Source: Paucilactobacillus hokkaidonensis JCM 18461 (lineage in GTDB: Bacteria; Bacillota; Bacilli; Lactobacillales; Lactobacillaceae). From it: a DNA stretch of 64,000 nt. Positions 19,881 through 62,604 of the stretch are shown piece after piece. A program made the position numbers and the translations under genes. The notes below the pieces were generated by a model. It worked only from the letters and a program-made list of their open reading frames with translations. It did no database searches and had not been told where the DNA came from. Within the stretch, counting starts at the first letter, position 1. Each line of letters opens with the position of its first letter. Location: NCBI RefSeq assembly GCF_000829395.1, contig NZ_AP014680.1, positions 434,001-498,000 on the forward strand. The letters are read 5' to 3'.

Positions 19881-19999
19881 GTGCTCACAAGGCCGTTAAG
19901 ATGTCGTAGGCTAAGCCTAAACCACCAATTAATAAATCGAATTATGATTTATTGATTGGTGGTTTAAGTTTAGCCCTAGACATCTGGCCTAGTGAGCAC
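19881..19999 (+). repeat. Long hairpin element, copy A (full)
   Basis: 119-nt imperfect palindrome. Successive stems from the outside are GTGCTCAC, GGCC, AGATGTC, GGCTAA and a 12-bp block with TAAACCACCAAT, each pairing with its partner on the 3' side and separated by small internal loops (GTTA; GTA/CTA; GCC/AGT). The terminal loop is near 19940. It begins 6 nt after the nagR stop and belongs to a family found in most large gaps of this window. Confidence 0.88.
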
Positions 20000-20021
20000 G
20001 ACTATAAAAATAACGTAGAAC

Positions 20022-20100
20022 ATTAATAAACCGAATTATGATTTATTGATTGGTGGTTTAAGTTTAGCCCCAGACATCTGGCCTAGTGAGCGCGACTACA
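20022..20100 (+). repeat. Partial hairpin element A2 (3' half duplicated)
   Basis: A 94-nt-offset tandem copy of the loop, 3' arm and flank of copy A (nearly identical to 19928-20006), with no second 5' arm. The 5' arm of copy A could pair with either 3' arm. The remaining gap to pncB (20101-20223) is AT-rich with a candidate -10 but nothing certain. Confidence 0.85.
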
Positions 20101-20223
20101 AAATATGGGTGATTTTAGCAATATAAATATCCCAAATTGTAAAAGCTAGGCATAAGGCAAAATTAATGCTAAAATATCTGTGATTTAAATAAAATTTTAA
20201 AAACAAGACGGAGGAGTAACCAA

Positions 20224-21690
20224 ATGAGTTACCGATTTCCAGATGATAGTCATACATTGCATACGGATGCTTATGAATTAAGCATGATGCAGACATATTG
20301 GCAAAAAGGAATGGCCGATCGTAGAGCAGTTTTTGAATTATATTTTAGAGATATGCCATTTGGTAACGGGTACGCAATTTTTGCAGGCCTTGAGCGGGTA
20401 ATTCAATATATTGAACAATTAAAATTTTCCGATAGTGACATTGAATACTTAAAGACCACCAGGCAATTTGATGATGGATTTTTAGAGTACCTTCGGGATT
20501 TTAAGTTTACCGGTTCAATTAATAGTACTGTTGAAGGTGACTTGGTCTTTAATAATGAACCGATCCTACAAGTTGATGGGCCATTGATTGGTAGTCAATT
20601 AGTTGAAACAGCACTTTTAAATATTGTTAATTATCAAACACTAATTGCTACTAAAGCTGCAAGAATTAAATCTGTGGTTGGCAGCGATCCATTGTTAGAA
20701 TTCGGAACTCGTCGTGCACAGGAAATGGATGCTGCTATTTGGGGCACCCGAGCAGCATATATTGGTGGCTTTGATGCAACTAGTAATGTTCGCGCTGGTA
20801 AATTATTTGGTATTCCGATTAGTGGGACGCATGCTCATGCGCTGGTTCAAGCGTATATGAATGATTATGATGCATTTAAGGCGTACGCTGAAACCCACTA
20901 TGAATGTGTTTTTTTGGTCGATACATTTGATACACTGAAGAGTGGTGTGCCAAATGCAATTCGAGTGGCTAAAGAAATGGGTACTAAAATTGATTTTCAA
21001 GGTGTTCGCATCGATAGCGGTGACATGGCCTATATTTCTAAGCGTGTGCGTCAGATGCTTGATGAAGCTGGTTTTACCGATGCTAAGATATATGCCTCCA
21101 ATGATCTTGATGAAAAAACAATCATGAACTTAAAAATGCAAAAGGCTAAAATTGACGTTTGGGGGATTGGAACTAAACTGATTACAGCCTTTGATCAACC
21201 AGCATTGGGTGCGGTGTACAAATTAGTTTCTTTTGAAGATGAGCATGGCAAGATGATTGATACGGTTAAAATATCTAGTAATGCTGCCAAGGTATCGACG
21301 CCTGGTAAAAAACAAGTATGGCGTATTACGGATCGGTCTGATGGCAAAACTGAAGGCGACTACGTGTCATTATGGGATGAAGATCCACGTGAGCAAGATT
21401 CAATTTATATGTTCAACCCGGACTACACGTATATCAATAAAACGGTTGAAAACTTTGATGCCCGTCCTATTTTACAACCGATTTTTGATCAAGGAAAATT
21501 AATATATAAAGTACCTGAATTATCTGAAATCAGACATTTTTCAAAGCAACACTTAGATATGTTATGGGATGAATATAAACGAGATCTAAATCCACAGATC
21601 TATCCAGTTGATTTATCACAAAATTGTTATGATAATAAAATGGAGATCATTCAACATGTTCGTGATTATGTGAACCAACTAAAATTTTAA
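20224..21690 (+). CDS. pncB: Nicotinate phosphoribosyltransferase
   Basis: Makes nicotinate mononucleotide from nicotinate and PRPP in NAD salvage. The 488-residue protein matches the long Gram-positive PncB type: HTDAYELSMMQTYW at the N-terminus, EFGTRRAQEMDAAIWG in the middle (the histidine-loop region) and the PRPP/base-binding block RIDSGDMAY. GGAGGAG lies 7 nt before the ATG. It is 15 nt from nadE, forming a salvage operon. Confidence 0.96.
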   Translation: MSYRFPDDSHTLHTDAYELSMMQTYWQKGMADRRAVFELYFRDMPFGNGYAIFAGLERVIQYIEQLKFSDSDIEYLKTTRQFDDGFLEYLRDFKFTGSINSTVEGDLVFNNEPILQVDGPLIGSQLVETALLNIVNYQTLIATKAARIKSVVGSDPLLEFGTRRAQEMDAAIWGTRAAYIGGFDATSNVRAGKLFGIPISGTHAHALVQAYMNDYDAFKAYAETHYECVFLVDTFDTLKSGVPNAIRVAKEMGTKIDFQGVRIDSGDMAYISKRVRQMLDEAGFTDAKIYASNDLDEKTIMNLKMQKAKIDVWGIGTKLITAFDQPALGAVYKLVSFEDEHGKMIDTVKISSNAAKVSTPGKKQVWRITDRSDGKTEGDYVSLWDEDPREQDSIYMFNPDYTYINKTVENFDARPILQPIFDQGKLIYKVPELSEIRHFSKQHLDMLWDEYKRDLNPQIYPVDLSQNCYDNKMEIIQHVRDYVNQLKF

Positions 21691-21705
21691 AATAGGAGAA
21701 CGAGA

Positions 21706-22533
21706 ATGCGAAGATTGCAACAAGAAATAATTGATGCTTTAAAGGTGAAACCAACGATCGATGTCGATGCAGAAATCAAGCGAAGTATTAATTTCATGCA
21801 ATCTTATTTGCAAAAAACAGGGTTACAAACGCTGGTCCTGGGTATCTCAGGCGGACAAGATTCTACGTTAGCTGGAAAACTGGCCCAAATGGCAATCACT
21901 GATTTGCGCACGCAGACTGAAGATTCACGATATCAATTCATTGCTGTTAGGTTGCCATATGGCAATCAGGCTGATGAAGCAGATGCCATGGCTGCAATTG
22001 ACTTTATGCAAGCCGATCAAGTGATGCGGGTTGATATCAAGCCAGCGACGGATGCAACGGTTAAGTCCTTGCAAGCTAACGAGATTGATGTCAGTGATTT
22101 TAATAAGGGAAATATTAAGGCGCGCCAACGAATGATTGTTCAATTTGGCATTGCTGGTCAGCTTCATGGTGCTGTGGTAGGTACTGACCATGCTAGCGAA
22201 GCTGTTACTGGTTTTTATACCAAGTTTGGCGATGGTGCTGCGGATATTACTCCAATTTGGCGATTAAATAAACGACAAGGCCGTCAACTGCTTGAAAATC
22301 TGGGTGCACCAAAACATCTTTATATTAAGGTTCCTACCGCTGACTTAGAGGATGATCGCCCTTCTCTTCCTGATGAGGTTGCATTAGGGGTTAGCTATGC
22401 TCAAATTGATGATTACCTAGAAGGTCGTGAAATTAATGATTCTGCGGCTGAAAAAATAGAACAATGGTATCTTAAGACGGGGCATAAGCGTCACCTGCCA
22501 ATTAATATTTATGATCAATGGTGGCAAGGTTAA
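21706..22533 (+). CDS. nadE: NH3-dependent NAD+ synthetase
   Basis: Last step of NAD synthesis: amidates nicotinate adenine dinucleotide using ATP and ammonia. The 275-residue protein has the PP-loop SGGQDS (48-53), the downstream GTDHASE block and [11 protein letters not shown] near the C-terminus. No glutaminase domain is present. AGGAGA precedes the ATG. Co-transcribed with pncB. Confidence 0.96.
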
Positions 22534-22559
22534 TGGTTTATTTTTTAATTAAAGTAAGG

Positions 22560-22565
22560 TATAAT
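22560..22565 (+). promoter_or_regulatory. -10 box of the riboswitch-ATPase transcript
   Basis: TATAAT at 22560-22565, about 6-7 nt before the likely transcription start and just ahead of the riboswitch. The -35 region is weak (TTTATT at 22537-22542). Confidence 0.55.
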
Positions 22566-22573
22566 TAATAATA

Positions 22574-22664
22574 TTCATAAGGGAGTAACTAGCAGAGTGA
22601 TCTGCGATAATTCCGTCAGCAAGAAGATCTTTCCGGGATTGTCATAATTAGTGAGACTTATGTA
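22574..22664 (+). ncRNA. yybP-ykoY (Mn2+) riboswitch aptamer
   Basis: Closing stem CATAAG (22576-22581) pairs with CTTATG (22657-22662). The 5' side has GGGAGTAACTAG, matching the conserved GGGAGUA of the family, and the 3' side has GTGAGAC, matching the second conserved loop. Between them are a hairpin GCAGA/TCTGC and a second arm. The placement immediately before a P-type cation ATPase is the classical context for this Mn2+-sensing class. Assignment rests on motif recognition, not a covariance search. Confidence 0.82.
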
Positions 22665-22706
22665 TGCACACAATTATTTGCGACGCATGCGTAAGTCTCT
22701 TTTTCT
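22653..22706 (+). terminator. Riboswitch-controlled terminator
   Basis: 15-bp stem 22653-22667 with 22685-22699 (two G-T pairs) followed by TTTTT. Its 5' strand overlaps the aptamer closing stem and the GAGAC loop. Ligand-bound aptamer would therefore exclude the terminator: a Mn2+-induced ON switch. Confidence 0.82.
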
Positions 22707-22734
22707 ATCGTATGACGCCCACAAGGAGGAAGCA

Positions 22735-25386
22735 ATGAAGCGATTATTTTATAACCAACCGATTGAACAAGTTTTTGATGATGTACACACAAAAACTAGT
22801 GGGTTAACTAATGAAGAAGTTGAAGCTAAACGATCCGAGTTTGGTGCTAATGAGTTAGAACAAAAAAAGCAAACGTCATTATTAGAAAAGTTTTTCAATC
22901 AATTTAAAGATTTGATGATCATTGTGTTGATTGTAGCGGCTTTGATTGCTGCTGTTTCGGGTGAGCTAGTTGACGCCATTATCATTATGTTGGTAGTTAT
23001 TCTAAATGCCATGTTTGGTGTTTTTCAAGAAGCAAAAGCCGAAAATGCCATTAATGCACTGAAGGAGATGTCGGCACCGGATGCACATGTTCGCCGTGGC
23101 GACCAAGTTGTGACCGTTAAAAGTGATGAATTGGTGCCAGGTGATATTGTTTTATTAGAAGCTGGCGACATTGTTCCGGCTGATATGCGATTGATTGAAG
23201 GTGCTGCACTAAAGATTGAAGAAGCAGCACTAACCGGAGAATCAGTGGCAACCGAAAAACAATTTAATGTTTTAGAGGACGAAACACTTGGAATTGGTGA
23301 TCGTTCAAATATGGCGTACATGAATACTAATGTAACCTATGGCCGGGCAACTGGGGTAGTTGTGGCGACTGGAATGCAAACTGAAATGGGCCGGATTGCG
23401 GGGATGTTGAATAAAACCGCGGAAACCCAAACCCCATTGCAAGCTAACCTGCAACAATTAGGTAAAGTGTTAACGTTTCTAATACTGATTATTGCAGTAA
23501 TCGTTTTTGTCATTGGTTTAATTCGTGGCGAAGAAACGGTCCTTGATATGTTATTAACTGCAATTTCGCTAGCTGTAGCCGCAATCCCAGAAGGACTACC
23601 AGCCATTGTAACGATTACGCTGGCCTTAGGAACGCAGCGGATGGTGAAACGACATGCATTAATTCGTAAATTACCAGCTGTTGAAACACTCGGTAGTACA
23701 GACATCATCGCTTCAGATAAAACTGGTACTTTAACTCAAAACAAGATGACGGTCGAACGCCTATATACTAACGGAGAATTAACTGATTCGAGTGAGCAAC
23801 AAGATGAGTCCACTGGCTTGTTAACCAAAATCATGGTATTAGCTAATGATACTAAGCAAACCTCTGACGGGCTACAGGGTGATCCAACTGAAACAGCTTT
23901 AGTTCAATATGCGTTAGACCATAATGTTAATGTCGAACAGTTGATGGCTGACAATCAGCGGGTAGCTGAAATTCCATTTGACTCTGAACGAAAATTAATG
24001 ACGACAATTCATCAAAATGCTGATGGTATCTTTGCAGCCAGTAAAGGTGCACCAGACGCATTATTAACGCGCATTACCAAAATAGAAATTGACGGCAATG
24101 TTCAGCCAATGGATGAGCAGGCTCGTACAAAGATTTTGCAACAAAATCATGACTTGGCCACACAGGCACTGCGTGTTTTGGCATTTGCATATAAACCATT
24201 GCAAACAGTCCCGAGTGATCCGACCAGTGAAGATGTTGAAAATGATCTGATTTTCGTTGGATTAATTGGAATGATTGATCCTGAACGACCAGAAGCTGCT
24301 GAATCAGTGGCTAAGGCGCATCAAGCAGGAATCAAAACAATTATGATTACTGGTGATCATCGTGACACGGCCCAAGCTATTGCAAACCGGCTGGGAATTG
24401 TTGACGACGGCGAAGATGATGCAGTTATTACTGGAGCCCAGTTAGACGAGCAAGATGATGCAACTTTTGCCAAAAACGTTAAGAAATATCGGGTATACGC
24501 TCGTGTAGCACCTGAGCATAAGGTTCGGATTGTTAAGGCATGGCAAAAGCATGGCAAAGTAGTTGCCATGACCGGTGATGGAGTCAATGATGCGCCGGCA
24601 TTGAAAACTGCTGATATTGGTGTTGGTATGGGAATTACCGGAACTGAAGTCTCCAAAGGCGCCAGTGAAATGGTACTGGCTGATGATAACTTTGCAACCA
24701 TTGTTGTGGCGGTTGAAGAAGGGCGTAAAGTTTTCGCCAATATTCAAAAATCAATTCAGTATCTGTTATCAGCTAACTTAGGTGAAGTAATCACACTATT
24801 TATGATGACAATTTTAGGTTGGCAAATTTTAGCACCGGTCCAAATCTTGTGGATTAACCTGGTTACTGATACGTTTCCGGCAATCGCTCTAGGAGTTGAA
24901 CCAACTGAGAAAAACATCATGAAGCGACCACCACGCGGACGTAGTTCCAATTTCTTGTCCGGTGGGGTGATGTCGAGCGTAATTTATCAAGGGATTCTAG
25001 AGGGACTGCTAACTTTAGGTGTTTATGCATATGCGTTGCTAGTTCCACTGCATACAGGGGATGCACAGATTCACGCCGATGCATTAACCATGGCATTTGC
25101 TACATTAGGGTTAATTCAATTGTTCCACGCATTTAATTCTAAATCGATTCATCAGTCACTATTCACGATTGGTTTTTGGAAAAACAAGTACTTTAACTTA
25201 GCTATTCTGGTAGCCTTCTTACTATTAGCAATCACGATTTGGTTACCAGGATTTAATCAACTGTTCCATGTTACTCACTTAGAATTAAGTCAGTGGGCAG
25301 TTGTAGTTATAGCAGGTATATTGATGATTGTAATAGTTGAATTGGTTAAATTAGTACAACGAAAGTTTTGGTACAACAAAAAATAA
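22735..25386 (+). CDS. Cation-transporting P-type ATPase, P2A-like, riboswitch controlled
   Basis: Membrane pump of 883 residues: cytoplasmic N-terminus, helices M1-M2 (about 58-98), actuator TGES (167-170), M4 motif PEGLPA (285-290), phosphorylated D328 in DKTGT, hinge TGDGVNDAP, and M6 NLVTDTFPA. The motifs are those of Ca2+/Mn2+-type P2 ATPases. With the Mn-type riboswitch, the likely job is export of excess Mn2+ (perhaps also Ca2+), as for YoaB/MgtA-like pumps of lactococci and streptococci. ATG 22735 has AAGGAGGA upstream; the longer frame to 22651 runs through the terminator. Confidence 0.9.
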
Positions 25387-25440
25387 ATTCAACAACAATT
25401 TTTAAGTTATTTAGTGTTAAAATTAAATAGTTGTGTCGAT

Positions 25441-28219: not shown

Positions 28220-28232
28220 ATTACACGTTGAT

Positions 28233-28318
28233 GCGGCCGTGGCGGAACTGGCAGACGCGCAAGATTAAGGATCTTGTGGTCAATTATGACCGTGGAGGTT
28301 CAAGTCCTCTCAGCCGCA
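28233..28318 (+). tRNA. tRNA-Leu (TAA)
   Basis: Class II tRNA of 86 nt with a long variable arm. Anticodon stem AAGAT/ATCTT encloses TAA. Acceptor GCGGCCG pairs with CAGCCGC except for a C-A mismatch at 6-67. Discriminator A; no CCA. A hairpin element starts 10 nt downstream and is the only terminator-like structure near it. Confidence 0.95.
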
Positions 28319-28327
28319 TAAAAAAGA

Positions 28328-28441
28328 GTGCGAACAGGTGCGTTTTGTGCCCGTGGCATAAAGCAAGTATCCCAATTACTTCGGTTTTCGAAGTGGTTGG
28401 GATGCTTGCTTTATGCGTTAGGGCACAGCACCCGTGAGCAC
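28328..28441 (+). repeat. Long hairpin element, copy B1 (full)
   Basis: 114 nt. Nested stems are GGTGC/GCACC, TGTGCCC/GGGCACA, GCATAAAGCAAG/CTTGCTTTATGC, ATCCCAA/TTGGGAT and ACTTCG/CGAAGT around a TTTT loop, separated by GTG/GTTA-type internal loops. It begins GTGCGAAC after AAAAAAGA and is followed by the tail GTTTCTGCAATAAAA. It directly follows tRNA-Leu. Confidence 0.88.
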
Positions 28442-28496: not shown

Positions 28497-28555
28497 CTTG
28501 CTTATGCGTTAGGAGACAGTGGTTGTGAGCACGTTTCTGCAATAAAACAGTGAAC
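28497..28555 (+). repeat. Partial hairpin element B2 (3' half duplicated)
   Basis: A 91-nt-offset, partly decayed copy of the 3' arm and tail of B1 (TATGCGTTAG, GTGAGCAC, GTTTCTGCAATAAAA). No matching 5' arm is present. Confidence 0.8.
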
Positions 28556-28785: not shown

Positions 28786-29766
28786 ATGATGACTACATTT
28801 GCAAAATTGACCGCCACCGCCAGTTATGTACCTGGCAGAATCGTTACAAATGATGAGTTAGCTGCTGTAATGCCAACCACAGACGATTGGATTGTGTCGC
28901 ATACTGGCATCCACACGCGCCATTATGCGTTTGATGATGAGAATACTTCTGATTTGGCTACTAAAGTAGGAATTAAGTTGTTAAAAAAAGCTGCATTGAC
29001 AGCCGATGAGATTGATTTAATTATTGTCACCACAATTACGCCGGACGCATTGACACCAGCTACTGCAAGTGTTGTTCAGGGTAAACTGAACGCAAAAAAT
29101 GCAGTGGCATTTGATGTTAGCGCAGCTTGTGCTGGATTTGTGTTTGGATTGAGTATTGCTGATAAAATGATGCGTAGCGGACAATTTCGACATGCACTGG
29201 TTATTAGTGCAGAAGTTAATTCTAAAATGATGGATTTCACTGATCGCACATCGGCCGTTTTTTTTGGTGATGGCGCAGGTGGGGCATTATTGTCGCAAAC
29301 ACAAGTAGAAAATGAAGAATTTTTAATTGCAGAAAAATTGCAAACAGATGGTACGAGAGCACAAACAATTCATAGTGGTCGAATTGTGCCATTAACTGAG
29401 GTTGCTTCTACAAATTATCCAACGACGGATGCTTTTTTTCAGGACGGACGTGCAGTCTTTGAATTTGCAACGACTACTGTTCCAGAACAAATTAAGCAAT
29501 TGTTGGCTGATGCGAAATACGCACCCGCAGAGTTGCAAATGGTTGTTTGCCATCAGGCTAACTTAAGAATCATTGAAACCATTTGTACTAAGCTAGGGAT
29601 GCCATTTGATAAATTTGCACACACTGTTGAACGTTTTGGAAACATGTCATCTGCTGGCATTCCCGTGACACTTGATCAGGAAACGCCAATTACAGGTGGT
29701 CAACCAATATTATTAAGTGGATTTGGTGCTGGTCTTAACTATGGCAGTATGTTAATCAGAATGTAG
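28786..29766 (+). CDS. fabH: Beta-ketoacyl-ACP synthase III
   Basis: Starts fatty-acid synthesis by condensing acetyl-CoA with malonyl-ACP. The 326-residue protein has the catalytic triad C115 (SAACAG), H256 (CHQAN) and N286 (RFGNMS). Two ATGs in tandem (28786, 28789) are possible starts; the ribosome site is weak. First gene of a tight unit with accB, accC, accD and accA. The usual companions (acpP, fabD, fabG, fabF, fabZ, fabI) are absent here and must be elsewhere. Confidence 0.94.
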   Translation: MMTTFAKLTATASYVPGRIVTNDELAAVMPTTDDWIVSHTGIHTRHYAFDDENTSDLATKVGIKLLKKAALTADEIDLIIVTTITPDALTPATASVVQGKLNAKNAVAFDVSAACAGFVFGLSIADKMMRSGQFRHALVISAEVNSKMMDFTDRTSAVFFGDGAGGALLSQTQVENEEFLIAEKLQTDGTRAQTIHSGRIVPLTEVASTNYPTTDAFFQDGRAVFEFATTTVPEQIKQLLADAKYAPAELQMVVCHQANLRIIETICTKLGMPFDKFAHTVERFGNMSSAGIPVTLDQETPITGGQPILLSGFGAGLNYGSMLIRM

Positions 29767-38148: not shown

Positions 38149-39126
38149 ATGAAATTTACAGTGGTCGGTTCAGGCGCAATGGGATTGCGCTATGGAGTTT
38201 TATTGCAAGAAGCAGGTAATGAGGTTGATTTTGTTGATACGTGGAAACCACATGTCGAAAAAATGAGGACACAGGGTGGGGTTTATGTTTCTCGTGATCA
38301 TAAAGACCGCCATTTGGTCCCAGTTAAAGTTTATTATCCAGAGGAATATAATGGCGATCCAGATTGTTATGTCTTTTTTACCAAACAAATGCAGTTAGCA
38401 GATGTGTTGAAACGATGCGCACACTTTTTTAAGCCACATCAATATGCATTAACTTGTATGAACGGGATGGGGCACGTTGAAAAATTACTCAAGTACTTTG
38501 CACCAGAAAAATTAGTGGCGGGAACTGCGTTAGTTGCAACGGTGCTAAATGGACCTGGAGATGTTGATTTTATCGGTGCTCGTGGGGCTGGAACAATGAA
38601 TTTAGCCAACTATACTGAAAAACCGGATGAATTTACACACCAACTTGTGGCACAGTTAGAGAAAGCACAATTTAATCCTAACTTGACCACCAACTTCCGT
38701 GGGACGCTGATGGCAAAAGTAGTTTTTAATTCTGTTGTGAATACGTTATGTACGATGTTTGAAATGACCATGGGTGAGTATGCTGCCTATGAAGGTGCAG
38801 ACGAAATGAGTCGACAACTAATTGACGAAGCGTATGATGCTTGTGAACGTGACGGGGTTAAAATGCTTAATACTCGCCAAGAAGAGTTGGATAGTGTGAA
38901 TTATGTCAGCAAAGTCGCTAATCCACTACATTACCCATCAATGTATCAAGATATGCATAATTATCGACCAACGGAGGTTGATTATATTAACGGATATCTA
39001 GTTAAATTGGGCCGTAAACACGGATATGAAGCAAAGACCCACGCATTTTTGACGCATGAGGTGCATTTGGCGGAGTTGCAGAAACAAAAAGAGCGTAAAG
39101 AGACGCGTTCAGAAGTTGTAGCATAA
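38149..39126 (+). CDS. 2-dehydropantoate 2-reductase family protein (PanE/ApbA)
   Basis: 325 residues, NAD(P)-dependent. Rossmann motif VVGSGAMGLRYG at 5-16, the family lysine in TLMAKVVFNSVVNTLC near residue 190, and a helical C-terminal domain. In lactic acid bacteria, members reduce ketopantoate (CoA synthesis) or branched 2-keto acids to D-hydroxy acids; sequence alone does not decide. AAAGGAG lies about 10 nt before the ATG. Two tandem hairpin elements begin right after the stop. Confidence 0.88.
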   Translation: MKFTVVGSGAMGLRYGVLLQEAGNEVDFVDTWKPHVEKMRTQGGVYVSRDHKDRHLVPVKVYYPEEYNGDPDCYVFFTKQMQLADVLKRCAHFFKPHQYALTCMNGMGHVEKLLKYFAPEKLVAGTALVATVLNGPGDVDFIGARGAGTMNLANYTEKPDEFTHQLVAQLEKAQFNPNLTTNFRGTLMAKVVFNSVVNTLCTMFEMTMGEYAAYEGADEMSRQLIDEAYDACERDGVKMLNTRQEELDSVNYVSKVANPLHYPSMYQDMHNYRPTEVDYINGYLVKLGRKHGYEAKTHAFLTHEVHLAELQKQKERKETRSEVVA

Positions 39127-39134
39127 AAAAAAGA

Positions 39135-39248
39135 GTGTGCAAGAAGACGAATAGGTCCTGAGCATTAACGTAACTTAACCCATGATCCCTGAACTTGGGA
39201 TCGTGGGTTAAGTTTTGTTAAGCGCAGGGACCTGTCTTCTGGAACAGG
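39135..39248 (+). repeat. Long hairpin element, copy C1
   Basis: Hairpin with stems AGAAGAC/GTCTTCT, AGGTCC/GGACCT, GC-AAC/GTT-GC and AACTTAACCCATGATCCC with its near-complement, around a short loop. Its first 37 nt align with the other copies (GTGTGCAAG.. ATAGGTCCTGAGC). It begins 8 nt after the PanE stop. The outermost GTGTGC has no exact partner here. Confidence 0.85.
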
Positions 39249-39261: not shown

Positions 39262-39375
39262 GTGTGCAAGAAGACGAATAGGTCCTGAGCATTAACGTAA
39301 CTTAACCCATGATCCCTGAACTTGGGATCGTGGGTTAAGTTTTGTTAAGCGCAGGGACCTGTCTTCTGGAAAGGG
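39262..39375 (+). repeat. Long hairpin element, copy C2 (tandem duplicate)
   Basis: Almost identical to C1 at an exact 127-nt period, differing mainly just after the 3' arm (GGAACAGG versus GGAAAGGG). Near-identity implies a very recent duplication, here of the whole element. Confidence 0.9.
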
Positions 39376-39572: not shown

Positions 39573-40904
39573 CTAGGCTAATGCGCCCATTGGATCCCAA
39601 GGCTTTAGCAATACTGGTTCTTGTGCTTGAGCTGTCTTTAATTTATCTGGTAAAGCCTCTTTTTTAACGACGATTTGATAACAAAATTCATCCATCCATG
39701 CATCGCTCATTACAAAGTATCCTTTAGTCCCAACTTTAGGACCCCAAGAATTTTCAACCTTCCACTTAGAAGGTTTACCATCAACTAAATCTACGCCGGT
39801 CAAGACCATTGCGTGAGTCATCATACTCTCACCATAATCCAATCGTTGGGCTTTAGTCATTGCAAAGAGTGTGCCAAATAATTCGGCTTCATTATAAATG
39901 TTAAGATCCATAATTCCCTTTTGGCGGTCTGAACTCTGACCAACATCACAACCGAACCAAACACTTTCACCAGCCTTTAATTGATCAATAGCCAGTTGCT
40001 TGAAATCATTCATTGTAACGTTAAGATGTTTAACACTACGGCCACCAACTACATTACCAAGCATGTCAATTGTGTAGGTTCGATTGTATGGTTTATCTTC
40101 AGTTGGAGCGTTAATGATTGAAACATAATCATCTAAATTCCAGCCAATGTATTTTTTAAAAAATGATTGAGGTGTTAAATCAGCATCACGATGATAATTT
40201 TTTTGTTCATCCCGATATTCAAAATCAAACTTAACTGGTGGTTGACCAAAACTGTATGTCAATATCCGATAAATTGCATTCAGCATTTCATTACGGGTGT
40301 CGTTAATCTGATCTTCACTCACATTATCCGCCACCAACTGACGTAAGGTAATTGCGTTTTCACGTAGCTTACGGTTTAACGTGGTGTTAATTTCGTTTGA
40401 TTTAGAACTATTATAAGTTTCAGGCATTGCTGATTGTGGTACAACTCCGTATTTTTCAATCAGAGCACACAACATATCCCATTGACCACCATCTTGTTGT
40501 GGTGTTTCCATTAACCAAGCAACTTCACGACTGCTAGCAGGTTGTTGAGCTGTTTTCAAAACATTTTCATAAAAGTAGTTAGCCTTTTCAAATTTATCCC
40601 AGAAAAATGTATATGATTGGGATAACTCAAATTTTTTTAGACCAAATTTTTGTGCCATGTCATGACGCATTGTATTTAACGCCGCGAACATCCAGCAACG
40701 ACCTGATTGTTTCTGGTTTGAAACGTCACCAGTATCAAGATCAATTGAAAAAACAGGATCTGATTCACTGATAGCGTGCCAATCATAACTACTAGCTAAA
40801 ATTCCATTTTTAGTGACCGCACGCTCTAGTGCGGATGAGGCTGGTTGCTTTTTTAGATCTTGGTTAAATTGTTTTAATTGTTCAGTTGTAATTTCATGAC
40901 TCAT
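39573..40904 (-). CDS. pepC: Aminopeptidase C (bleomycin hydrolase family)
   Basis: Cytosolic cysteine peptidase of lactic acid bacteria that releases N-terminal residues from peptides; it partners with peptide import such as DtpT. 443 residues, peptidase family C1B: C70 in QSGRCWMFAA, the histidine in MTHAMVLTG and the asparagine in VENSWGPKVG near the C-terminus. AAGGAGAAT lies upstream of the start. First and longest gene distal to rpiA on the minus strand. Confidence 0.96.
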   Translation of the reverse strand: MSHEITTEQLKQFNQDLKKQPASSALERAVTKNGILASSYDWHAISESDPVFSIDLDTGDVSNQKQSGRCWMFAALNTMRHDMAQKFGLKKFELSQSYTFFWDKFEKANYFYENVLKTAQQPASSREVAWLMETPQQDGGQWDMLCALIEKYGVVPQSAMPETYNSSKSNEINTTLNRKLRENAITLRQLVADNVSEDQINDTRNEMLNAIYRILTYSFGQPPVKFDFEYRDEQKNYHRDADLTPQSFFKKYIGWNLDDYVSIINAPTEDKPYNRTYTIDMLGNVVGGRSVKHLNVTMNDFKQLAIDQLKAGESVWFGCDVGQSSDRQKGIMDLNIYNEAELFGTLFAMTKAQRLDYGESMMTHAMVLTGVDLVDGKPSKWKVENSWGPKVGTKGYFVMSDAWMDEFCYQIVVKKEALPDKLKTAQAQEPVLLKPWDPMGALA

Positions 40905-46809: not shown

Positions 46810-46829
46810 AATTAATAATGAGATTAAAT

Positions 46830-46867
46830 AACAAAGTTGAGGGAATTCTTATTTCCTCAACTTTGTT
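46830..46867 (+). terminator. Inverted repeat after gltX, terminator-like but without T run
   Basis: AACAAAGTTGAGG pairs with CCTCAACTTTGTT (13 bp) around a 12-nt loop. The tail is ATGTTACGG, so it lacks the T tract of an intrinsic terminator. It may stabilise the 3' end. Confidence 0.6.
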
Positions 46868-46891
46868 ATGTTACGGGGAATTGTTGGAAAC

Positions 46892-47010
46892 GTGCTCACG
46901 AAGGTAGATGCCTAGGGCCAAGTCAGAAATGGTAGTTAAACAATCATAGTTCGATTATTTAACTACCATTTCTGACTTGGTCTACGGCACCTGAACGCCT
47001 CCGTTCGCAC
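46892..47010 (-). repeat. Long hairpin element, copy E (reverse orientation)
   Basis: 119 nt. Inner arms CCAAGTCAGAAATGGTAGTT and complement are perfect; the middle stem is AGGTGCC/GGCATCT (minus reading) and the outer GTGCGAACG / CGTGAGCAC. The minus-strand 5' arm contains GGCGTTCAGGTGCCGTAG, matching the family consensus. It lies 62 nt before cysS; the remainder to cysS is AT-rich. Confidence 0.88.
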
Positions 47011-53713: not shown

Positions 53714-53942
53714 TTGAATAAAAGCAACACGGCCTATATCTTTAATCCCCATAAAATACTAAATTTGATTATAATGAGCAAACTAATTAATTTGCCCATT
53801 AAAATTTTATAATGCTCACCATATATTCATAATTAGTGTGATATTCAATTATTTCTGCATATTAAACATATGTTCTCTTGTACGAAAAATTAGCTTGGGT
53901 ATATTTAATAGTGATAATAATTTAAAATTTTGGGGAGGAATT

Positions 53943-54518
53943 ATGCTTATAACTGCAGAGCACTCTGATTCTGACATGGAATTACTCACGCGATTTATCG
54001 CCGGAGATTCAGTCAGCTTTACAGCTTTATTTGAACGTTATTTACCATTGGTCCACAAATTTGGGCGGCAATATTATTTTCAGGATATTGATCGAGAGGA
54101 TTGGGAACAAGAGGCACGAATAGTAATGTTAAAAACAATTCGTTGCTACAAAGAAGAACTACAGGTTGATTTTGGCTATTTTTATAAACTTAATTTGAAA
54201 CATCGTGCATTTGATATTATTCGGCAAGAAAATGCATCAAAGAGGATTCATGAAGAAAAACGAGTTAATTTAGAAGTAGAAGATATCCATGAAAGTTTAG
54301 TTGACTATCATCAATGTCCGCCAGATGATTGTATCATGTGTCATGAGCAGTTAAAGGCATTTATCGCTCAATGCTCACCATTTGAAACCAATGTATTTCG
54401 ACTGATTCATTCGGGACTATCGCAGGAAATGACAGCCCAAAAATTACATTGTGATTCACGTAAAATTACGGGTGCGCTAGATAGATGCCAGAAAAAGTTG
54501 AATTTTTTATTAAAATAG
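53943..54518 (+). CDS. SigH/ComX-like RNA polymerase sigma factor
   Basis: 191 residues of sigma-70 type. Region 2 covers about 12-95 (LLTRFIAGDSVSFTALFERYLPLVHKFGRQYY, then DREDWEQEARIVMLKTIRCY and HRAFDIIRQENASKR). Region 4-like helix-turn-helix near the end (GLSQEMTAQKLHCDSRKITGALDRCQKKL). In other Firmicutes sigH follows the cysS-mrnC-rlmB block, as it nearly does here. Homologues in lactobacilli drive late competence genes. ATG 53943 has GGGGAGG 6 nt upstream. The stop abuts hairpin element F. Confidence 0.85.
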   Translation: MLITAEHSDSDMELLTRFIAGDSVSFTALFERYLPLVHKFGRQYYFQDIDREDWEQEARIVMLKTIRCYKEELQVDFGYFYKLNLKHRAFDIIRQENASKRIHEEKRVNLEVEDIHESLVDYHQCPPDDCIMCHEQLKAFIAQCSPFETNVFRLIHSGLSQEMTAQKLHCDSRKITGALDRCQKKLNFLLK

Positions 54519-54519: not shown

Positions 54520-54640
54520 GCGCGAACAGCCGCGTTCATAAGTCGTAGTGTAACGTGAAAATACGCATCCTGTGATTCGATCTTTGAATCACAGGATGCG
54601 TATTTTTGGGTTACACGGAGACTTTTGCGGCTGTTCGCGC
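54520..54640 (+). repeat. Long hairpin element, copy F (full, best preserved)
   Basis: 121 nt, starting one base after the sigma gene stop (TAG-A-GCG). Stems: GCGCGAACAGCCGC / GCGGCTGTTCGCGC (14 bp), AAGTC/GACTT, GTGTAAC/GTTACAC, and AAAATACGCATCCTGTGATTC with its complement; loop GATCTT. Internal loops are GTTCAT/TT, GTA/GGA and GTG/TGG. No T run follows, so it is not an ordinary intrinsic terminator. Confidence 0.92.
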
Positions 54641-54671
54641 ATTTCAGCAAGAAAAGAGGGATTTACTCACA

Positions 54672-54748
54672 CGCATGAGGCAATTCGATCTTTGAATCAC
54701 AGCATGCGTATTTTTGGGTTACACGGAGACTTTTGCGACTGTTAGCGC
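54672..54748 (+). repeat. Partial hairpin element F2 (3' half duplicated)
   Basis: Repeats the loop, inner stem, GGTTACACGGAGACTTTTGC and end of F (CTGTTAGCGC) plus the 3' flank TTTCAGCAAGAAAAGA, at a 108-nt offset. The 5' arm is reduced to CGCATGAGGC. Confidence 0.88.
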
Positions 54749-54776
54749 ATTTCAGCAAGAAAAGAAGATTTATTCA

Positions 54777-54853
54777 CGCATGAGGCAATTCGATCTTTGA
54801 ATCACAGCATGCGTATTTTTGGGTTACACGGAGACTTTTGCGGCTGTGATCGC
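54777..54853 (+). repeat. Partial hairpin element F3 (second 3'-half duplicate)
   Basis: Third 3' arm in tandem, 105 nt after F2 and nearly identical to it, ending CGGCTGTGATCGC. One 5' arm (in F) now has three possible 3' partners. It reaches to within 40 nt of the end of the convergent crcB gene. Confidence 0.88.
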
Positions 54854-54891
54854 ATGTTAACAGTTACAATACGTGTAGGTTTTTTAAATTC

Positions 54892-56332: not shown

Positions 56333-57184
56333 ATGGTGGATAACGAACACGGGTTGGTTGGCTCGCCAGCTTATACCAGCTGGATGAAACAAAAAATTGA
56401 AAATGATTCAACTAAAGACAATTGTCGTAATATATTGATTCAGATGTTCAATCAACTAGGGGCACATCTTAACAGTCTGGGCGACCTGGAATTACCAGCT
56501 GATTTTGATTCGGATTTAAATCCAAATTCAATTTTTTTTAGTACGTTGGCAAGGATTGTTCAAGTAGCTTTTCCAGCGGGATTAGCTGAGGGATCAATTC
56601 AAGATATTAAACTCAGAAAAATGGTGCATCAATTACGTTATTATCTTGATGTGTTTAATGTTAGCTATTTGCGGCGTCAATATTCTGATGTTGAAAATGA
56701 TCGGCAAAGATTAATTTTATACGATCTTGATTGTTATCAAAACAGACAGCAAATGAGTCATTCGGAACCAGCACGACTACACAATAAGCTTGATCGTCAA
56801 TTGAAAATACCAGTTATGGATGGCTGGAATATTAAACGGGTTTATGATTTTCACGTAGAATTCATTTTAGATAGGCACGGGAGGTTCGTTTATTTAGATT
56901 TACAGCAACTTGGTAAGCAATTACCAGGACAAATCATTAACTGCAGTTCGTTCAATTATGCTGACCGAAACGATGATCAGCACAAAAAGTTGGATATTCA
57001 TTATAACGCTCGAAAAAGTCCATTAAGTCAATCCAAAGATCCGGGTTTGCGAAGCAGCTTTAACAGCCATACTTATTCACCTAAAAAAGATAATTTGGCT
57101 AATACAATTAGAGAAATTTGGTTTCAATTACAATTTGATCTGTGCCGACGCTGGGAATTATTAAAACGACGTATTAAAAATTAA
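56333..57184 (+). CDS. Uncharacterised protein, 283 residues
   Basis: I do not recognise a family. It appears soluble, with no signal peptide or membrane helix. The N-terminal half (about 10-135) is mainly helical with many charged residues; the C-terminal half has WNIKRVYDFHVEFILDRHGRFVYLDLQQLG, a beta-rich stretch, and ends in WFQLQFDLCRRWELLKRRIKN, a basic amphipathic helix. Codon use looks like its neighbours. It follows the RibD-C gene by 8 nt with AAGGA as ribosome site, so the two are likely co-transcribed. Confidence 0.75.
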   Translation: MVDNEHGLVGSPAYTSWMKQKIENDSTKDNCRNILIQMFNQLGAHLNSLGDLELPADFDSDLNPNSIFFSTLARIVQVAFPAGLAEGSIQDIKLRKMVHQLRYYLDVFNVSYLRRQYSDVENDRQRLILYDLDCYQNRQQMSHSEPARLHNKLDRQLKIPVMDGWNIKRVYDFHVEFILDRHGRFVYLDLQQLGKQLPGQIINCSSFNYADRNDDQHKKLDIHYNARKSPLSQSKDPGLRSSFNSHTYSPKKDNLANTIREIWFQLQFDLCRRWELLKRRIKN

Positions 57185-57239
57185 AATAAAGGGGAAGAAT
57201 TGTTTTGCAGTTGCAAGATAATTCTTCCCCTTTATTTTA
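57183..57239. terminator. Bidirectional terminator
   Basis: AATAAAGGGGAAGAATT pairs perfectly with AATTCTTCCCCTTTATT around an 18-nt loop, with A run on the left and T run on the right. It serves the unknown gene (+) and the convergent HesB-like gene (-). Confidence 0.9.
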
Positions 57240-57240
57240 T

Positions 57241-58583: not shown

Positions 58584-58597
58584 AATTTGAATATATA

Positions 58598-58648
58598 AAA
58601 AAGTATTTCTGTGAGAAATTTTATTTCACGGAGATACTTTTTTTGTAG
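58598..58648 (+). terminator. Terminator of the aldo/keto reductase gene
   Basis: AGTATTTCTGTGA pairs with TCACGGAGATACT (two G-T pairs), followed by seven T. Confidence 0.9.
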
Positions 58649-58736
58649 AAAGCTTTATTTAGCTAATGTAAACGGTTGTAATTATGATATTTAAATTAGG
58701 TTTGGTAATATTGGGACAATAACATAAAATTTATGA

Positions 58737-58783
58737 TTGACTATGATTTATAACAGAATATACTGTAATTGAGCAAGCGCTCA
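58737..58783 (+). promoter_or_regulatory. Promoter of the acyltransferase-GT8 cluster with +1 palindrome
   Basis: TTGACT (58737-58742), 16-bp spacer, TATACT (58759-58764). TGAGCAAGCGCTCA (58770-58783), an inverted repeat of TGAGC spaced by 4 nt, covers the expected start site. Such a site suits a TetR-type repressor; no such regulator lies nearby. A cre-like but imperfect TGTAAACGGTTGTA lies at 58667-58680. Confidence 0.65.
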
Positions 58784-58824
58784 GCATGCTATAGACTACC
58801 ATTAATTACGAAGGGAGGACGGAC

Positions 58825-59592: not shown

Positions 59593-59642
59593 GCAAATGA
59601 TCACAAGATTTAATTCTAAATATGAGAGGACAATATTTTTTT

Positions 59643-60611
59643 ATGGACACACAAAAAGAAACGATCCCATTATTTTTTTCAGTAGATGACGGCTATGTTC
59701 CATTTTTGGCAGTTGCACTGAAGTCAATTATTGATAATGCATCGAAAGATTATAATTATGAAGGCATTGTTTTGCACGAAGGAATTTCTAAACAAAATCA
59801 AGCAGAAATTGCTGCAATTACGGCCGATAACTTTTCAGTTAAGTTTGTTTCAATGAAAGGGAAACTTAATGAGCAGATGAAAGGGGAACAGGCAAAATTA
59901 CGTGGTGATTATTTTACATTTACCATTTTCTTTAGACTTTTTATCGCTGATATGTTCCCAGAATATGATAAAGCAATTTATCTTGATGCTGATATTATTG
60001 TCCCGGGAGATGTTTCAGAGCTTTACAATATTGAATTAGGAAGTAATGTTGTGGGTGCTATTAGTGATTTATTCATTTCCAAGAATTCGGAAACAATCGA
60101 ATACAGTGAAAGTGCAATGGGTGTACCAATTACAGATTATGTTAATTCCGGAGTTTTACTAATGAATCTAGCACAGTTACGGAAAACAAGTCTAAGCCAG
60201 GTCTTTTTACGGTTATACAATAAATATCATTTTGAGACGATTGCACCTGATCAAGATTATTTAAATGTAATCGGGCATGACAAGATTAAACATTTAGGAT
60301 TTGAATGGAATACTCAGACTGCTGCGTTAGTGCATGAAAATGAGGTAGCAACTCCGAAGATAATTCATTACAATTTATTTCGGAAGCCTTGGTATTACAA
60401 GCATGTTATCTTTGAAGATTATTTCTGGAAGTATGCGAAAAGTTTGGGTTACGAATCTGAATTTGTTGAGATGCAAAATAATTATTCACAAGAACAAGCA
60501 GTTGCAGATCAGGATAATTTAACGGGGCTATTAAGCATGGCTGCAAAGATTGATGACGGTGATATAACCTTTAAGAAAATCCAAGAAAGGGGGGAACAAA
60601 TTACAATATGA
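59643..60611 (+). CDS. Glycosyltransferase family 8
   Basis: About 322 residues. GT-A fold with FFSVDDGYVPFLAVALKSII at the N-terminus, the metal-binding D115-A-D117 in AIYLDADIIV, ITDYVNSGVLLMNL and KIIHYNLFRKPW. The last 50 residues form a polar tail beyond the usual domain. ATG 59643 is chosen because AGAGGA is then upstream, not inside the gene. Its stop overlaps the start of the next acyltransferase by 4 nt (ATGA), indicating coupling. Acceptor unknown. Confidence 0.88.
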   Translation: MDTQKETIPLFFSVDDGYVPFLAVALKSIIDNASKDYNYEGIVLHEGISKQNQAEIAAITADNFSVKFVSMKGKLNEQMKGEQAKLRGDYFTFTIFFRLFIADMFPEYDKAIYLDADIIVPGDVSELYNIELGSNVVGAISDLFISKNSETIEYSESAMGVPITDYVNSGVLLMNLAQLRKTSLSQVFLRLYNKYHFETIAPDQDYLNVIGHDKIKHLGFEWNTQTAALVHENEVATPKIIHYNLFRKPWYYKHVIFEDYFWKYAKSLGYESEFVEMQNNYSQEQAVADQDNLTGLLSMAAKIDDGDITFKKIQERGEQITI

Positions 60612-61492
60612 TCGATAGAATGCTCCTCGGCGATGATCGTGATAGTGTAATCGCTAATATAAAAAAAGCTGCTAACGAGGGCCGGTTCAATGATAAGGTA
60701 GAAAATGGTGATCCGGTATTGTCGGTTGAACAACAAGATTTGGTACTGACAAATTATCTCAAGAAACACGATGGACTTGCTTACAAGTTTAATAATTTGA
60801 TTTCGCGGGTAACAGTGAATTCGGCCCTTAAATTTATCACGCGAACTGTAAAAATTGAGGGATTAGATAATATTAAAGCAGTTACGAGCGGAGCCATTGT
60901 GACAAGTAATCATTTTAGTCCGTTAGACACAGCTTATGTGCACAAAGCCGTTGTTAAGGCTGGTAAGTCTCGGTTATATATTGTTTCAGAATTAGAAAAT
61001 CTGAAAATGCAGGGACTATTAGGCTATATTATGAATTACTATGATACGATGCCAATTAGTACTAATGCCAACTATATGGGACGAGAGTTTCCGGAATTAG
61101 TAAAAAACATTTTGGATCGGGATCAATTTGTTTTAATTTATCCGGAACAAGAAATGTGGTTCAATTATCGTAAACCTCGTCCACCCAAAAGGGGTGCATA
61201 TTATTATGCCGCTAAATTTAAAGTTCCAATAATTTCTTGTTTTGTTGAGATGCAAAATCAGGCTAAGGTGAAAGATTCGGAGTTTGGTGACGTTGCAATT
61301 ATAATTCATATTTTAAATCCCATATATCCGGATCCACACAAGAGTGAACATGAAAATAGCATTTTACTAATGAATCAAGACTATGCGCAGAAAAGTACAG
61401 CATATGAAAAAGTGTACAATAAAAAATTAGATTACAAGTTTGCAGATGCAGATATTGCTGGTTGGTATCCGCCTGAACATTTAGACAATTAA
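60608..61492 (+). CDS. 1-acyl-sn-glycerol-3-phosphate acyltransferase-like protein
   Basis: 294 residues. About 80 polar N-terminal residues precede a PlsC domain with TSNHFSPLD (H102, D107: canonical H-x4-D) and VLIYPEQEMWFNYRKPRPPKRG. No clear transmembrane helix, unlike standard PlsC. GGGGG-AA is the ribosome site inside the GT8 gene. It may acylate the product of the GT8 enzyme, but this is inferred from position only. Confidence 0.84.
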   Translation: MIDRMLLGDDRDSVIANIKKAANEGRFNDKVENGDPVLSVEQQDLVLTNYLKKHDGLAYKFNNLISRVTVNSALKFITRTVKIEGLDNIKAVTSGAIVTSNHFSPLDTAYVHKAVVKAGKSRLYIVSELENLKMQGLLGYIMNYYDTMPISTNANYMGREFPELVKNILDRDQFVLIYPEQEMWFNYRKPRPPKRGAYYYAAKFKVPIISCFVEMQNQAKVKDSEFGDVAIIIHILNPIYPDPHKSEHENSILLMNQDYAQKSTAYEKVYNKKLDYKFADADIAGWYPPEHLDN

Positions 61493-61542
61493 TTTTTCGC
61501 ATATTTTAGCAATAAAAATTCGTTATAAAAGGGGGATCTTAA

Positions 61543-62094
61543 ATGAAGTACCTACTTTTATTACGTGGCATCAATGTTGGTGGACACAGCAGAGTTGCAA
61601 TGCAGGAACTAAAATTGGCACTGACAAACGTTGGATTTAATCGTGTTACTTCGTATATTAATAGTGGTAATTTAATTTTTGAGAGCACATTATCACAGCA
61701 AAAAATTAGTGACAAAATAGAGCAATTATTGAAAAATAACTACAAATTTCCAATTGTTTCAATGGTTATTAGCGAAGTGGAATACCGATCTGACTTTGTT
61801 AATTTGCCCAAATGGTGGGGTGAAGATGAACAGTTACGACACAATGCTTTATTTTTATTACCAACTTTTGATAAAAATGGTTTTGATGATATTAGAAATA
61901 GAATTACGGAGTATGATCAAGTGGAATTTAGGGAACACGTCATATTGTGGACTTCAACGCTAAAAAAGGATTTTAGTAAATCCCTATATTCAAAATTAAT
62001 GAAAGAAAAATTCTATCATGATATCTCGATCAGAAACCGAAATACGGCACTAAAATTATTAGCATTGTTATCAGAAAAAAGTGGGGAACAATAA
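61543..62094 (+). CDS. DUF1697 family protein
   Basis: 183 residues with the family start YLLLLRGINVGGHSRVAMQELK, then SYINSGNLIFES and the C-terminal RNRNTALKLLALL. Function unknown; soluble. GGGGG precedes the ATG. The stop overlaps the next start (TAATG), so both genes are probably translated together. Confidence 0.88.
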   Translation: MKYLLLLRGINVGGHSRVAMQELKLALTNVGFNRVTSYINSGNLIFESTLSQQKISDKIEQLLKNNYKFPIVSMVISEVEYRSDFVNLPKWWGEDEQLRHNALFLLPTFDKNGFDDIRNRITEYDQVEFREHVILWTSTLKKDFSKSLYSKLMKEKFYHDISIRNRNTALKLLALLSEKSGEQ

Positions 62095-62420
62095 TGGAAA
62101 TAAAAGAATTTAAAGCACGTTCTAATCACATCCGGGCTGCATACCATCAATTAGAGGTTAAGCAAGATGGACATCCTTGGAACACGGAACAAGACGCATT
62201 AGCATTTTTAACAGATGCTGCGTTAGTTGGACGATTAGTCATGGATAAGCAGGGGAGTTGGCCAAGCGAGGACAATATGTTCTCACTTGATTATAAAATC
62301 GCCGAAAGTATGTGGTGGCTGAATTCAATTGCGACGGCTAATAATATTGATATTGAAACGGCACTGAAATCATTTTTAGAAGCACGAGAAAAGTATACGA
62401 GTGTGAACAACCGCGATTAG
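62094..62420 (+). CDS. MazG-like nucleotide pyrophosphohydrolase-type small protein
   Basis: 108 residues, all-alpha. The stretch SLDYKIAESMWWLNSIATANNIDIETALKSFLEAR resembles the second half of MazG-like domains; the first metal-binding helix is less clear, so activity is uncertain. Its last codons (V-N-N-R-D-stop) lie inside hairpin element G, which starts at 62401, so the natural C-terminus may have been replaced by the element. Confidence 0.7.
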   Translation: MEIKEFKARSNHIRAAYHQLEVKQDGHPWNTEQDALAFLTDAALVGRLVMDKQGSWPSEDNMFSLDYKIAESMWWLNSIATANNIDIETALKSFLEAREKYTSVNNRD

Positions 62421-62516
62421 ATAACGGAGTGTAACGTAATAATGACCCTTACATGGTGATTTACCATGTAAGGGTCATTATTTTGTTATACGTAGTTATC
62501 TGCGGTTGCCGAACAC
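62401..62516 (+). repeat. Long hairpin element, copy G (overlaps gene end)
   Basis: 116 nt beginning GTGTGAACAACCGCG within the 3' end of the MazG-like gene. Stems: GATAAC/GTTATC, GTGTAAC/GTTATAC, ATAATGACCCTTACATGG and complement, with an internal loop GGA/GTA. The 3' tail GTTTATTCTATCAAAGTAGG follows. Confidence 0.88.
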
Positions 62517-62544
62517 GTTTATTCTATCAAAGTAGGAAGAATGG

Positions 62545-62604
62545 TGAATTTCCATGTAAGGGTCATTATTTTGTTACACTCCGTTATCTGCGGTTGCCGA
62601 ACAC
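62545..62604 (+). repeat. Partial hairpin element G2 (3' half duplicated)
   Basis: An 88-nt-offset copy of the 3' arm and tail of G. Its segment GTTACACTCCGTTATC is a perfect 16-nt complement of the 5' arm in G, closing the internal loop that the nearer 3' arm leaves open. It is followed by GTTTACTCCATCAAAAT. From here to 62855 the DNA is AT-rich without a recognised gene. Confidence 0.88.

What the first reader, a model, noticed from the sequence alone, without database searches (positions are those of the whole stretch)
19881..62604. Dispersed family of long, covarying hairpin elements in gene-end gaps
Nine full copies (A 19881, B1 28328, B3 28591 minus, C1 39135, C2 39262, D 39450 minus, E 46892 minus, F 54520, G 62401), each 114-122 nt, align without gaps over the first 37 nt. 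Approximate consensus: GTGYGAAC, then ARNCG, then CGTTNAGRTGYCGTAG, then NNTAAG. Middle stem pairs differ but remain paired: AGATGTC/GACATCT in A, AGGTGCC/GGCATCT in E, TGTGCCC/GGGCACA in B1, AAGTC/GACTT in F, AGGTCC/GGACCT in C. The unpaired CGTT-A and GTAG positions stay alike. Compensating stems with fixed internal loops indicate selection on a folded RNA or single-stranded DNA. I recognise no named class.
Basis: seen in the sequence. Interest (0 to 1): 0.85.

Follow-up and report, generated by a model that had tools for sequence, protein, structure and literature searches.

The report
Gene-end hairpin repeats of lactobacilli
The nine long hairpins belong to a repeat family with more than a hundred copies in this food bacterium and many in its relatives, often sitting directly behind a gene's stop codon and keeping their folded shape while their letters change; what they do and how they spread is not yet proven.

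Summary
All nine copies fit one covariance model. The genome, Paucilactobacillus hokkaidonensis LOOC260T, has at least 122 copies. Matches occur in 77 of 201 Lactobacillaceae genomes, 19 of 40 genera, but in only one other-family genome among 299 Bacilli (capped searches). No Rfam family reaches its cut-off. Shared plan: foot stem, GA/GA loop, 7-8 bp stem, CGNTTA bulge, 7 bp stem, 3x3 loop, long inner stem, apical YGRWYU loop, tail GTTTC. Stems vary freely but co-vary across genera (score 0.88, shuffles 0.20). New here: 76 genes have a copy glued to the stop codon, with an ordinary terminator following in 6 of 76 against 24 of 83 other gene ends. The inner stem tolerates G-T far more than A-C on the gene-sense strand; the outer stem shows no bias. 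Copies with unrelated flanks can be 92-94% identical, so the unit disperses. Half copies look like deletion products. No Y1 transposase or reverse transcriptase was found in the genome. Best reading: a non-autonomous palindromic element that settles at gene ends and whose inner hairpin serves as transcript 3' end; mechanism inferred.

The parts
19881..19999 (+). Copy A; head 6 nt behind the stop codon of a GntR/UTRA regulator gene (19174-19875)
   Evidence: R1 118.6 bits; Pfam
20022..20103 (+). 3'-half copy of A (apical end, 3' arm, tail)
   Evidence: 95% identity to 19928-20009
28328..28441 (+). Copy B1; head 9 nt behind the end of tRNA-Leu (28232-28319)
   Evidence: R1 99.4 bits; ARAGORN
28502..28554 (+). 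Partial 3'-half copy of B1
   Evidence: 85% identity
28591..28711 (-). Copy B3, opposite to its neighbours, upstream of a beta-ketoacyl-ACP synthase III gene (28786-29766)
   Evidence: R1 112.7 bits; Pfam
39135..39247 (+). Copy C1; head 9 nt behind the stop codon of a ketopantoate reductase gene (38149-39126)
   Evidence: R1 69.3 bits; Pfam
39262..39374 (+). Copy C2, tandem repeat of C1 at 127 bp
   Evidence: R1 58.5 bits; 98% identity to C1
39450..39571 (-). Copy D; head directly behind the stop codon of the Peptidase_C1_2 gene (39573-40904, minus)
   Evidence: R1 105.4 bits; Pfam
46892..47010 (-). Copy E, between gltX-like and cysS-like genes, opposite to both; no copy at this place in relatives G001 and G006
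   Evidence: R1 115.6 bits; synteny
54520..54640 (+). Copy F; head directly behind the stop codon of a Sigma70_r2 gene (53838-54518)
   Evidence: R1 107.5 bits; Pfam
54671..54765 (+). First 3'-half copy of F
   Evidence: 92% identity; second downstream hit
54775..54860 (+). Second 3'-half copy of F (end approximate)
62401..62516 (+). Copy G; the stop codon of ORF 62094-62420 lies inside the element
   Evidence: R1 94.6 bits; ORF list
62541..62628 (+). 3'-half copy of G
   Evidence: 90% identity

Best explanation
A family of dispersed, non-autonomous palindromic elements of Lactobacillaceae (unit about 110-125 nt, from (N)AGA|GTG to CAC|GTTTC) that settles directly behind stop codons. Shown: the common architecture, free but covarying stems, the joining to stop codons, near-identical units between unrelated flanks, loss by deletion. 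Inferred: (1) the unit is copied to new gene ends by an enzyme encoded elsewhere that recognises a folded single strand (bulge, 3x3 loop, apical loop); (2) it is tolerated, and partly useful, because its long inner hairpin forms in the upstream gene's transcript and serves as its 3' end (terminator-like, or a block to exonucleases) where relatives can have an ordinary intrinsic terminator; (3) copies later shrink by slippage, mostly losing the 5' arm and leaving 3'-half copies.
For: Architecture and covariation in 12 copies and in 54 rows from other genera. Inner stem G-T 507: A-C 50, similar in both fork orientations and all four gene contexts; outer stem 24:25; other genera inner 130:8, middle 17:7, outer 5:7. 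Upstream same-strand gene in 95 of 137 copies, opposite in 40, undetermined in 2, median gap 2-3 nt for the same-strand ones. Canonical terminator after 6 of 76 glued genes against 24 of 83 other gene ends and 3 of 83 shuffled. Ordinary terminator at the same stop position in G001 at site F. A-tract and U-tract at the inner stem's foot in 74 of 137 own copies. Dispersed pairs at 92-94% identity with unrelated flanks. Deletion products on plasmids; 3'-part copies behind 23 of 133 copies, in front of none.
Against: No mobilising enzyme was found: no Y1 transposase and no RVT_1 reverse transcriptase in the genome; DDE transposases were not tested. No gain at a proven empty site with near-identical flanks was seen; the one near-identical 'empty' plasmid site is best read as a deletion. 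Copies at the same gene end in relatives are slightly more alike (0.687) than random pairs (0.649), so part of the distribution may be vertical. 40 of 137 copies have no same-strand gene upstream, and on plasmids one copy lies inside a PTS operon opposite to the genes. The A/U-tract feet are present in only 16 of 53 copies of other genera. None of the matches listed is on the genome's own two plasmids.
Confidence: 0.5

Rival explanations
1. A vertically inherited class of structured RNA: a lineage-specific terminator or 3'-UTR stability element, with fast compensatory change and local tandem duplication but no transposition.
For: 47 of 94 site comparisons have a copy at the same gene end in a relative about 80% identical, and at least 7 of the other 47 look occupied too by fold energy; weak orthologous similarity; a copy behind the same Peptidase_C1_2 gene in Secundilactobacillus angelensis (read by eye); strong G-T bias of the inner stem.
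Against: Near-identical copies at unrelated places; copy numbers from 1 to over 100 within one genus; no G-T bias in the outer stem.
Confidence: 0.25
2. A MITE: internally deleted derivative of a DDE insertion sequence, moved by that transposase; the hairpin is just the paired terminal repeats.
For: Short dispersed palindromic units with sharp ends; present on plasmids.
Against: Fixed internal bulge, loops and apical loop with otherwise free stem sequence are not expected of terminal repeats; no target-site duplication recognised; no parent with the same ends was seen, though no dedicated search for one was made.
Confidence: 0.12
3. No selection on folding: arms stay complementary because template switching in DNA hairpins copies one arm onto the other.
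For: The half copy of G complements the 5' arm over 49 nt at 90%, better than G's own 3' arm over 39 nt at 85%; hairpin-type deletions occur; outer stems are almost purely Watson-Crick.
Against: Copying would erase the bulge and 3x3 loop, which are kept, and would not give a ten-fold excess of G-T over A-C in the inner stem.
Confidence: 0.06

Closest known systems
REP / BIME elements with RAYT transposases (passages of PMC3733652)
   Same: High-copy extragenic palindromes, often downstream of genes; G-T pairs in stems; a GTAG/GGAG-like tetranucleotide next to a hairpin (here inside, at the 3x3 loop).
   Different: Described there as 20-40 bp with a terminal GTAG and stems mostly 6-9 bp, in phyla that do not include Bacillota; here 110-125 nt, no Y1 transposase in the genome, GTAG not at the end.
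Pneumococcal BOX, RUP and SPRITE repeats (abstract of PMC3049150)
   Same: Interspersed repeats of Lactobacillales with strong folding, judged there to be parasitic and of slow current spread.
   Different: Described as nearly confined to pneumococcus and close kin; sequences were not compared here.
Intrinsic (rho-independent) terminators
   Same: Hairpin behind the stop codon; A-tract and U-tract feet on the inner stem in 74 of 137 own copies.
   Different: Nested in a conserved outer shell whose 3' arm would not be transcribed if termination happened at the inner U-tract; dispersed as a family; U-tract not general in other genera.
Integron attC sites (recalled)
   Same: Folded-strand plan with bulges, shape kept while sequence varies, place behind a gene.
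   Different: attC box motifs (recalled) are not in the consensus; neighbours are core genes in conserved order, not cassettes.

Membership tests
REP/RAYT | Y1 (IS200/IS605-type) transposase in the genome | tested here: not met
   PF01797: 0 matches in the own genome; control rings in 5 of 14 known genomes. Relatives were not tested.
REP/RAYT | 20-40 bp unit with a terminal GTAG | tested here: not met
   Units of about 110-125 nt; GTAG/GGAG is internal.
MITE | Target-site duplication | tested here: inconclusive
   None recognised in flanks of 136 copies (by eye) or in three plasmid comparisons.
MITE | Autonomous parent with the same ends | not tested
   No search for the ends around a transposase gene was made.
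Intrinsic terminator | Hairpin followed by a U-tract, stopping transcription | tested here: inconclusive
   A/U-tract feet in 74 of 137 own copies, 16 of 53 in other genera; few canonical terminators behind glued copies. Termination itself cannot be tested here.
Rfam 15 families | Score at or above a family's gathering cut-off | tested here: not met
   (whole window); permissive searches give only sub-threshold hits, mostly eukaryotic microRNA hairpins.
Integron attC | Boxes RYYYAAC and GTTRRRY (recalled) | tested here: not met
   Consensus foot and tail GTTTC do not fit (by eye).
Retroelement | Reverse transcriptase encoded in the genome | tested here: not met
   PF00078: none in the own genome, G001 or G006; 1 of 9 genomes (G005) has a match.

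The most novel reading that the evidence does not exclude
A new class of composite mobile element of Lactobacillaceae: a DNA shell recognised as a folded single strand and moved by an unknown enzyme that targets stop codons, carrying an RNA hairpin that becomes the 3' end of whichever gene it joins, so that one repeat family has taken over transcript-end formation at scores of unrelated genes.
Probability: 0.25. Interest if true: 0.8.

Novelty: new variant of a known kind. Interest (0 to 1): 0.62.

Why it matters
If right, a repeat family that I could not find described shapes the ends of many genes in food and probiotic lactobacilli, some carrying over 100 copies, and offers a natural test case for how palindromes spread, are kept and are lost. 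The split between an inner stem with strand-specific wobble tolerance and an outer stem without it is a concrete clue that can be tested.

Tried and rejected
Rejected: an Rfam family; REP with RAYT; movement by a resident reverse transcriptase; attC-like cassettes (host genes tested are core-type genes and gene order is kept). The tail as target-site duplication: rejected because GTTTCNNCAATAAAAATAG is shared by copies at unrelated sites.

Led nowhere or only part of the way. Phages: one Lacticaseibacillus-type copy (L242) has no match in 50,697 phage records; copy A has none among plasmids. SbcCD loss as a licence for palindromes: SbcD is below cut-off in the own genome, G001 (76% complete) and G006, which have over 100 matches each, and above it in G002, G003, G004 and G005, which showed 1, 11, 7 and 50 matches with 60 candidates scored; but G076 with 139 matches has it and several genomes without matches lack it. 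Stop codons in all three frames of the head: 33 of 136 against 12 of 136 shuffled, too weak to build on. An automatic fold test for hidden copies among 'empty' sites did not discriminate well (29 of 47 with 35 or more pairs). A viral-contig scan with the peptidase protein found no relative and says nothing about the repeat.

Literature: searches (open PMC library only) listed no title or abstract start that describes such a family; I read none of those papers in full. PMC12306157 and PMC3733652 hold no word beginning with 'lactobacill' in their main text (passages seen). PMC2267715: one passage seen. PMC4377027, the genome paper: passages seen; 'palindrom' occurs twice, both for CRISPR. PMC3049150: abstract seen. 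Subscription journals are not covered.
Full report
WHAT WAS CHECKED. The nine hairpins are at the stated coordinates. A covariance model R1 was built from 12 copies, eight of the nine window copies and four from elsewhere in the chromosome, with the structure common to their own minimum-energy folds. Paired cells are 93.5%, against 69.9% in column shuffles and 33-40% with slid partners.

WHERE IT IS. The sizes (C1 2,277,985; total 2,400,586) equal those printed for Lactobacillus (now Paucilactobacillus) hokkaidonensis LOOC260T (passages of PMC4377027). R1 gives 137 matches at E<=1, which are 122 distinct, non-overlapping places. Only 150 of 2219 candidates were scored, so this is a lower bound; it also includes a few weak matches (one at E 0.29). 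A search of the window and 79 stretches (354 kb) gave 233 matches; the best 150 collapse to 137 distinct copies, which are used below. All matches listed lie on the chromosome. Relatives: 16 of 60 genomes at E<=0.001, with 1 to 57 matches in the six same-genus relatives (60 candidates scored); with 150 scored, G001 and G006 have 122 and 118 matches, both strands counted. Lactobacillaceae: 77 of 201 genomes, 19 of 40 genera at E<=1e-7, 18 candidates scored each; 16 carriers scored with 150 candidates give 6 to 139 matches. Class Bacilli: 2 of 299, the own genome and one of another family at E 8e-7, 12 candidates scored each; one search had one other-family genome at 4e-5. So the family looks close to confined to Lactobacillaceae within these capped searches. 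Named carriers: 11 matches at E<=0.1 over 52 named loci, in Secundilactobacillus, Lacticaseibacillus, Lapidilactobacillus, Levilactobacillus, Schleiferilactobacillus and Companilactobacillus; 14 plasmid records of Pediococcus (9) and Lacticaseibacillus (5).

ANATOMY. From outside in: head AGA in front of GTG (96 of 136 copies; 39 read TAGA), a 4 bp foot, a GA/GA internal loop, a 7-8 bp stem, a bulge C-G-N-T-T-A, a 7 bp stem, a 3x3 loop, NNTAA paired with TTANN (one A-T pair kept in 137 of 137), an inner stem of some 25-30 bp, an apical loop near YGRWYU, then the tail GTTTC ((G/A)TTT in 107 of 136). In 53 distinct copies of other genera, one with 73% GC, the plan is the same; 48 of 50 pairs are changed on both sides and the covariation score is 0.88 against 0.20 in shuffles and 0.09-0.16 with slid partners (54 rows counted, one of them a reverse-strand match). 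Such alignments are fitted to the model and lean towards it.

TWO KINDS OF STEM. If the gene-sense single strand matters, G-T should be tolerated and A-C not. A symmetric Watson-Crick alignment of the inner arms of 137 copies gives G-T 507 and A-C 50; 237:25 in copies co-directional with the fork, 270:25 head-on; by gene context 191:16, 133:19, 51:0 and 134:14. Some of this is shared ancestry or fixed wobbles: in the model alignment 112 G-T cells lie in one column pair at the apical loop and 62 in another. Leaving out six such column pairs, my sum is 184:35. The seven pairs of the outer stem give 24:25 (my sum). Other genera repeat this: inner 130:8, middle 17:7, outer 5:7. A mutation bias would hardly be limited to the inner stem. 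The test does not by itself separate RNA from single-stranded sense DNA.

GENE ENDS. Of 137 copies, the gene upstream of the head is on the same strand in 95, on the other in 40, undetermined in 2; the median gap to same-strand genes is 2-3 nt (a simple ORF picker, not a gene finder). 76 genes have a copy glued on, from 45 nt before to 15 nt behind the stop. A canonical terminator follows within 150 nt in 6 of these 76, in 24 of 83 other gene ends with gaps over 60 nt, and in 3 of 83 shuffled sequences (my own strict finder, so absolute rates are low). At site F relative G001 has its stop codon at the corresponding place, followed by an ordinary terminator. In 74 of 137 own copies the inner stem has an A-rich and a T-rich foot like an intrinsic terminator, in other genera 16 of 53. 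Some decayed copies in G001 seem to keep little more than the inner hairpin (sites 1911010, 1920002, 1946974, by eye).

TURNOVER. Of 94 own-site/relative comparisons, 47 have a copy at the same gene end and 47 were called empty; this over-counts empties, since at least 7 of these 47 fold at -59 kcal/mol or lower over the 190 nt examined and read as copies, and others look decayed. Copies at the same end share 0.687 identity on average, random pairs 0.649 (s.d. 0.048): a weak vertical signal. In contrast, single copies at unrelated places of one genome can be 92-94% identical, with similarity ending at AGA|GTG and CAC|GTTTC, e.g. 626732/786306, 776349/2038459 and 2140363/956211 in the own genome: the unit disperses. 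Arrays occur, such as seven copies at 132 bp spacing. Partial copies: 23 of 133 copies tested are followed by a 3' part, 2 by a nearly full further copy, 5' parts follow in two places (one an array), and none of the 133 is preceded by a partial copy (correcting one search's self-matches). Two plasmids at 99.9% identity differ by a 57-bp loss of the 5' arm and loop with a 5-bp repeat at the joint, which would make a 3'-half copy. The 'empty' site on an L. plantarum plasmid keeps the 3' foot and is best read as a deletion between TGTGAGCG and TGCGAGCG of the two feet. Three L. paracasei plasmids show a three-unit array, a single unit and a remnant.

HOW IT MOST LIKELY WORKS. See Best explanation. 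Shown: architecture, covariation, strand bias of the inner stem, joining to stop codons, dispersal, deletion. Inferred: movement by an enzyme supplied in trans on a folded strand; 3'-end function. The enzyme was not found: no Y1 transposase and no reverse transcriptase in the genome; other transposase types were not searched.

NOVELTY. No Rfam match and no report in the searches named under Tried and rejected. The kind (dispersed folded repeats such as REP, BOX, RUP) is known. This variant differs by length, fixed loops with nearly free stems, near-fixed distance to stop codons, spread over a whole bacterial family, and the inner/outer asymmetry.

Noticed in passing
own chromosome C1, about 0.96-1.5 Mb and 0-0.146 Mb: Few or no copies: per 100 kb the 122 places run 0 3 6 10 11 4 9 6 5 2 0 0 2 0 0 5 11 2 5 10 9 14 8; the sparse stretch includes the expected terminus and the two prophages of PMC4377027.
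   Followed up: no
window 57182-57239 and 46826-46871: Two other near-perfect hairpins (27 and 21 bp arms) that R1 does not match; the second follows the gltX-like gene and looks like its ordinary terminator.
   Followed up: no
genomes G000, G001, G006 against G002-G005: SbcD is below the family cut-off in the three Paucilactobacillus genomes richest in hairpins and above it in the other four; the link fails in other genera.
   Followed up: partly
L131 5009-5124 (Secundilactobacillus angelensis): A copy sits behind what reads as the same peptidase gene end as window copy D, although Paucilactobacillus relatives G001, G003 and G006 have none there (by eye).
   Followed up: partly
G006 contig C10 20368-20410, behind tRNA-Leu (site B): A mini-hairpin keeps the GAGTG head and the ACGTTAAGG bulge but lacks the long inner stem, followed by ATTTTTG.
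   Followed up: no
L328 and L329 (plasmids), between PTS IIB and IIC genes: A copy lies inside an operon, opposite to the genes, where a sense terminator would be harmful.
   Followed up: no
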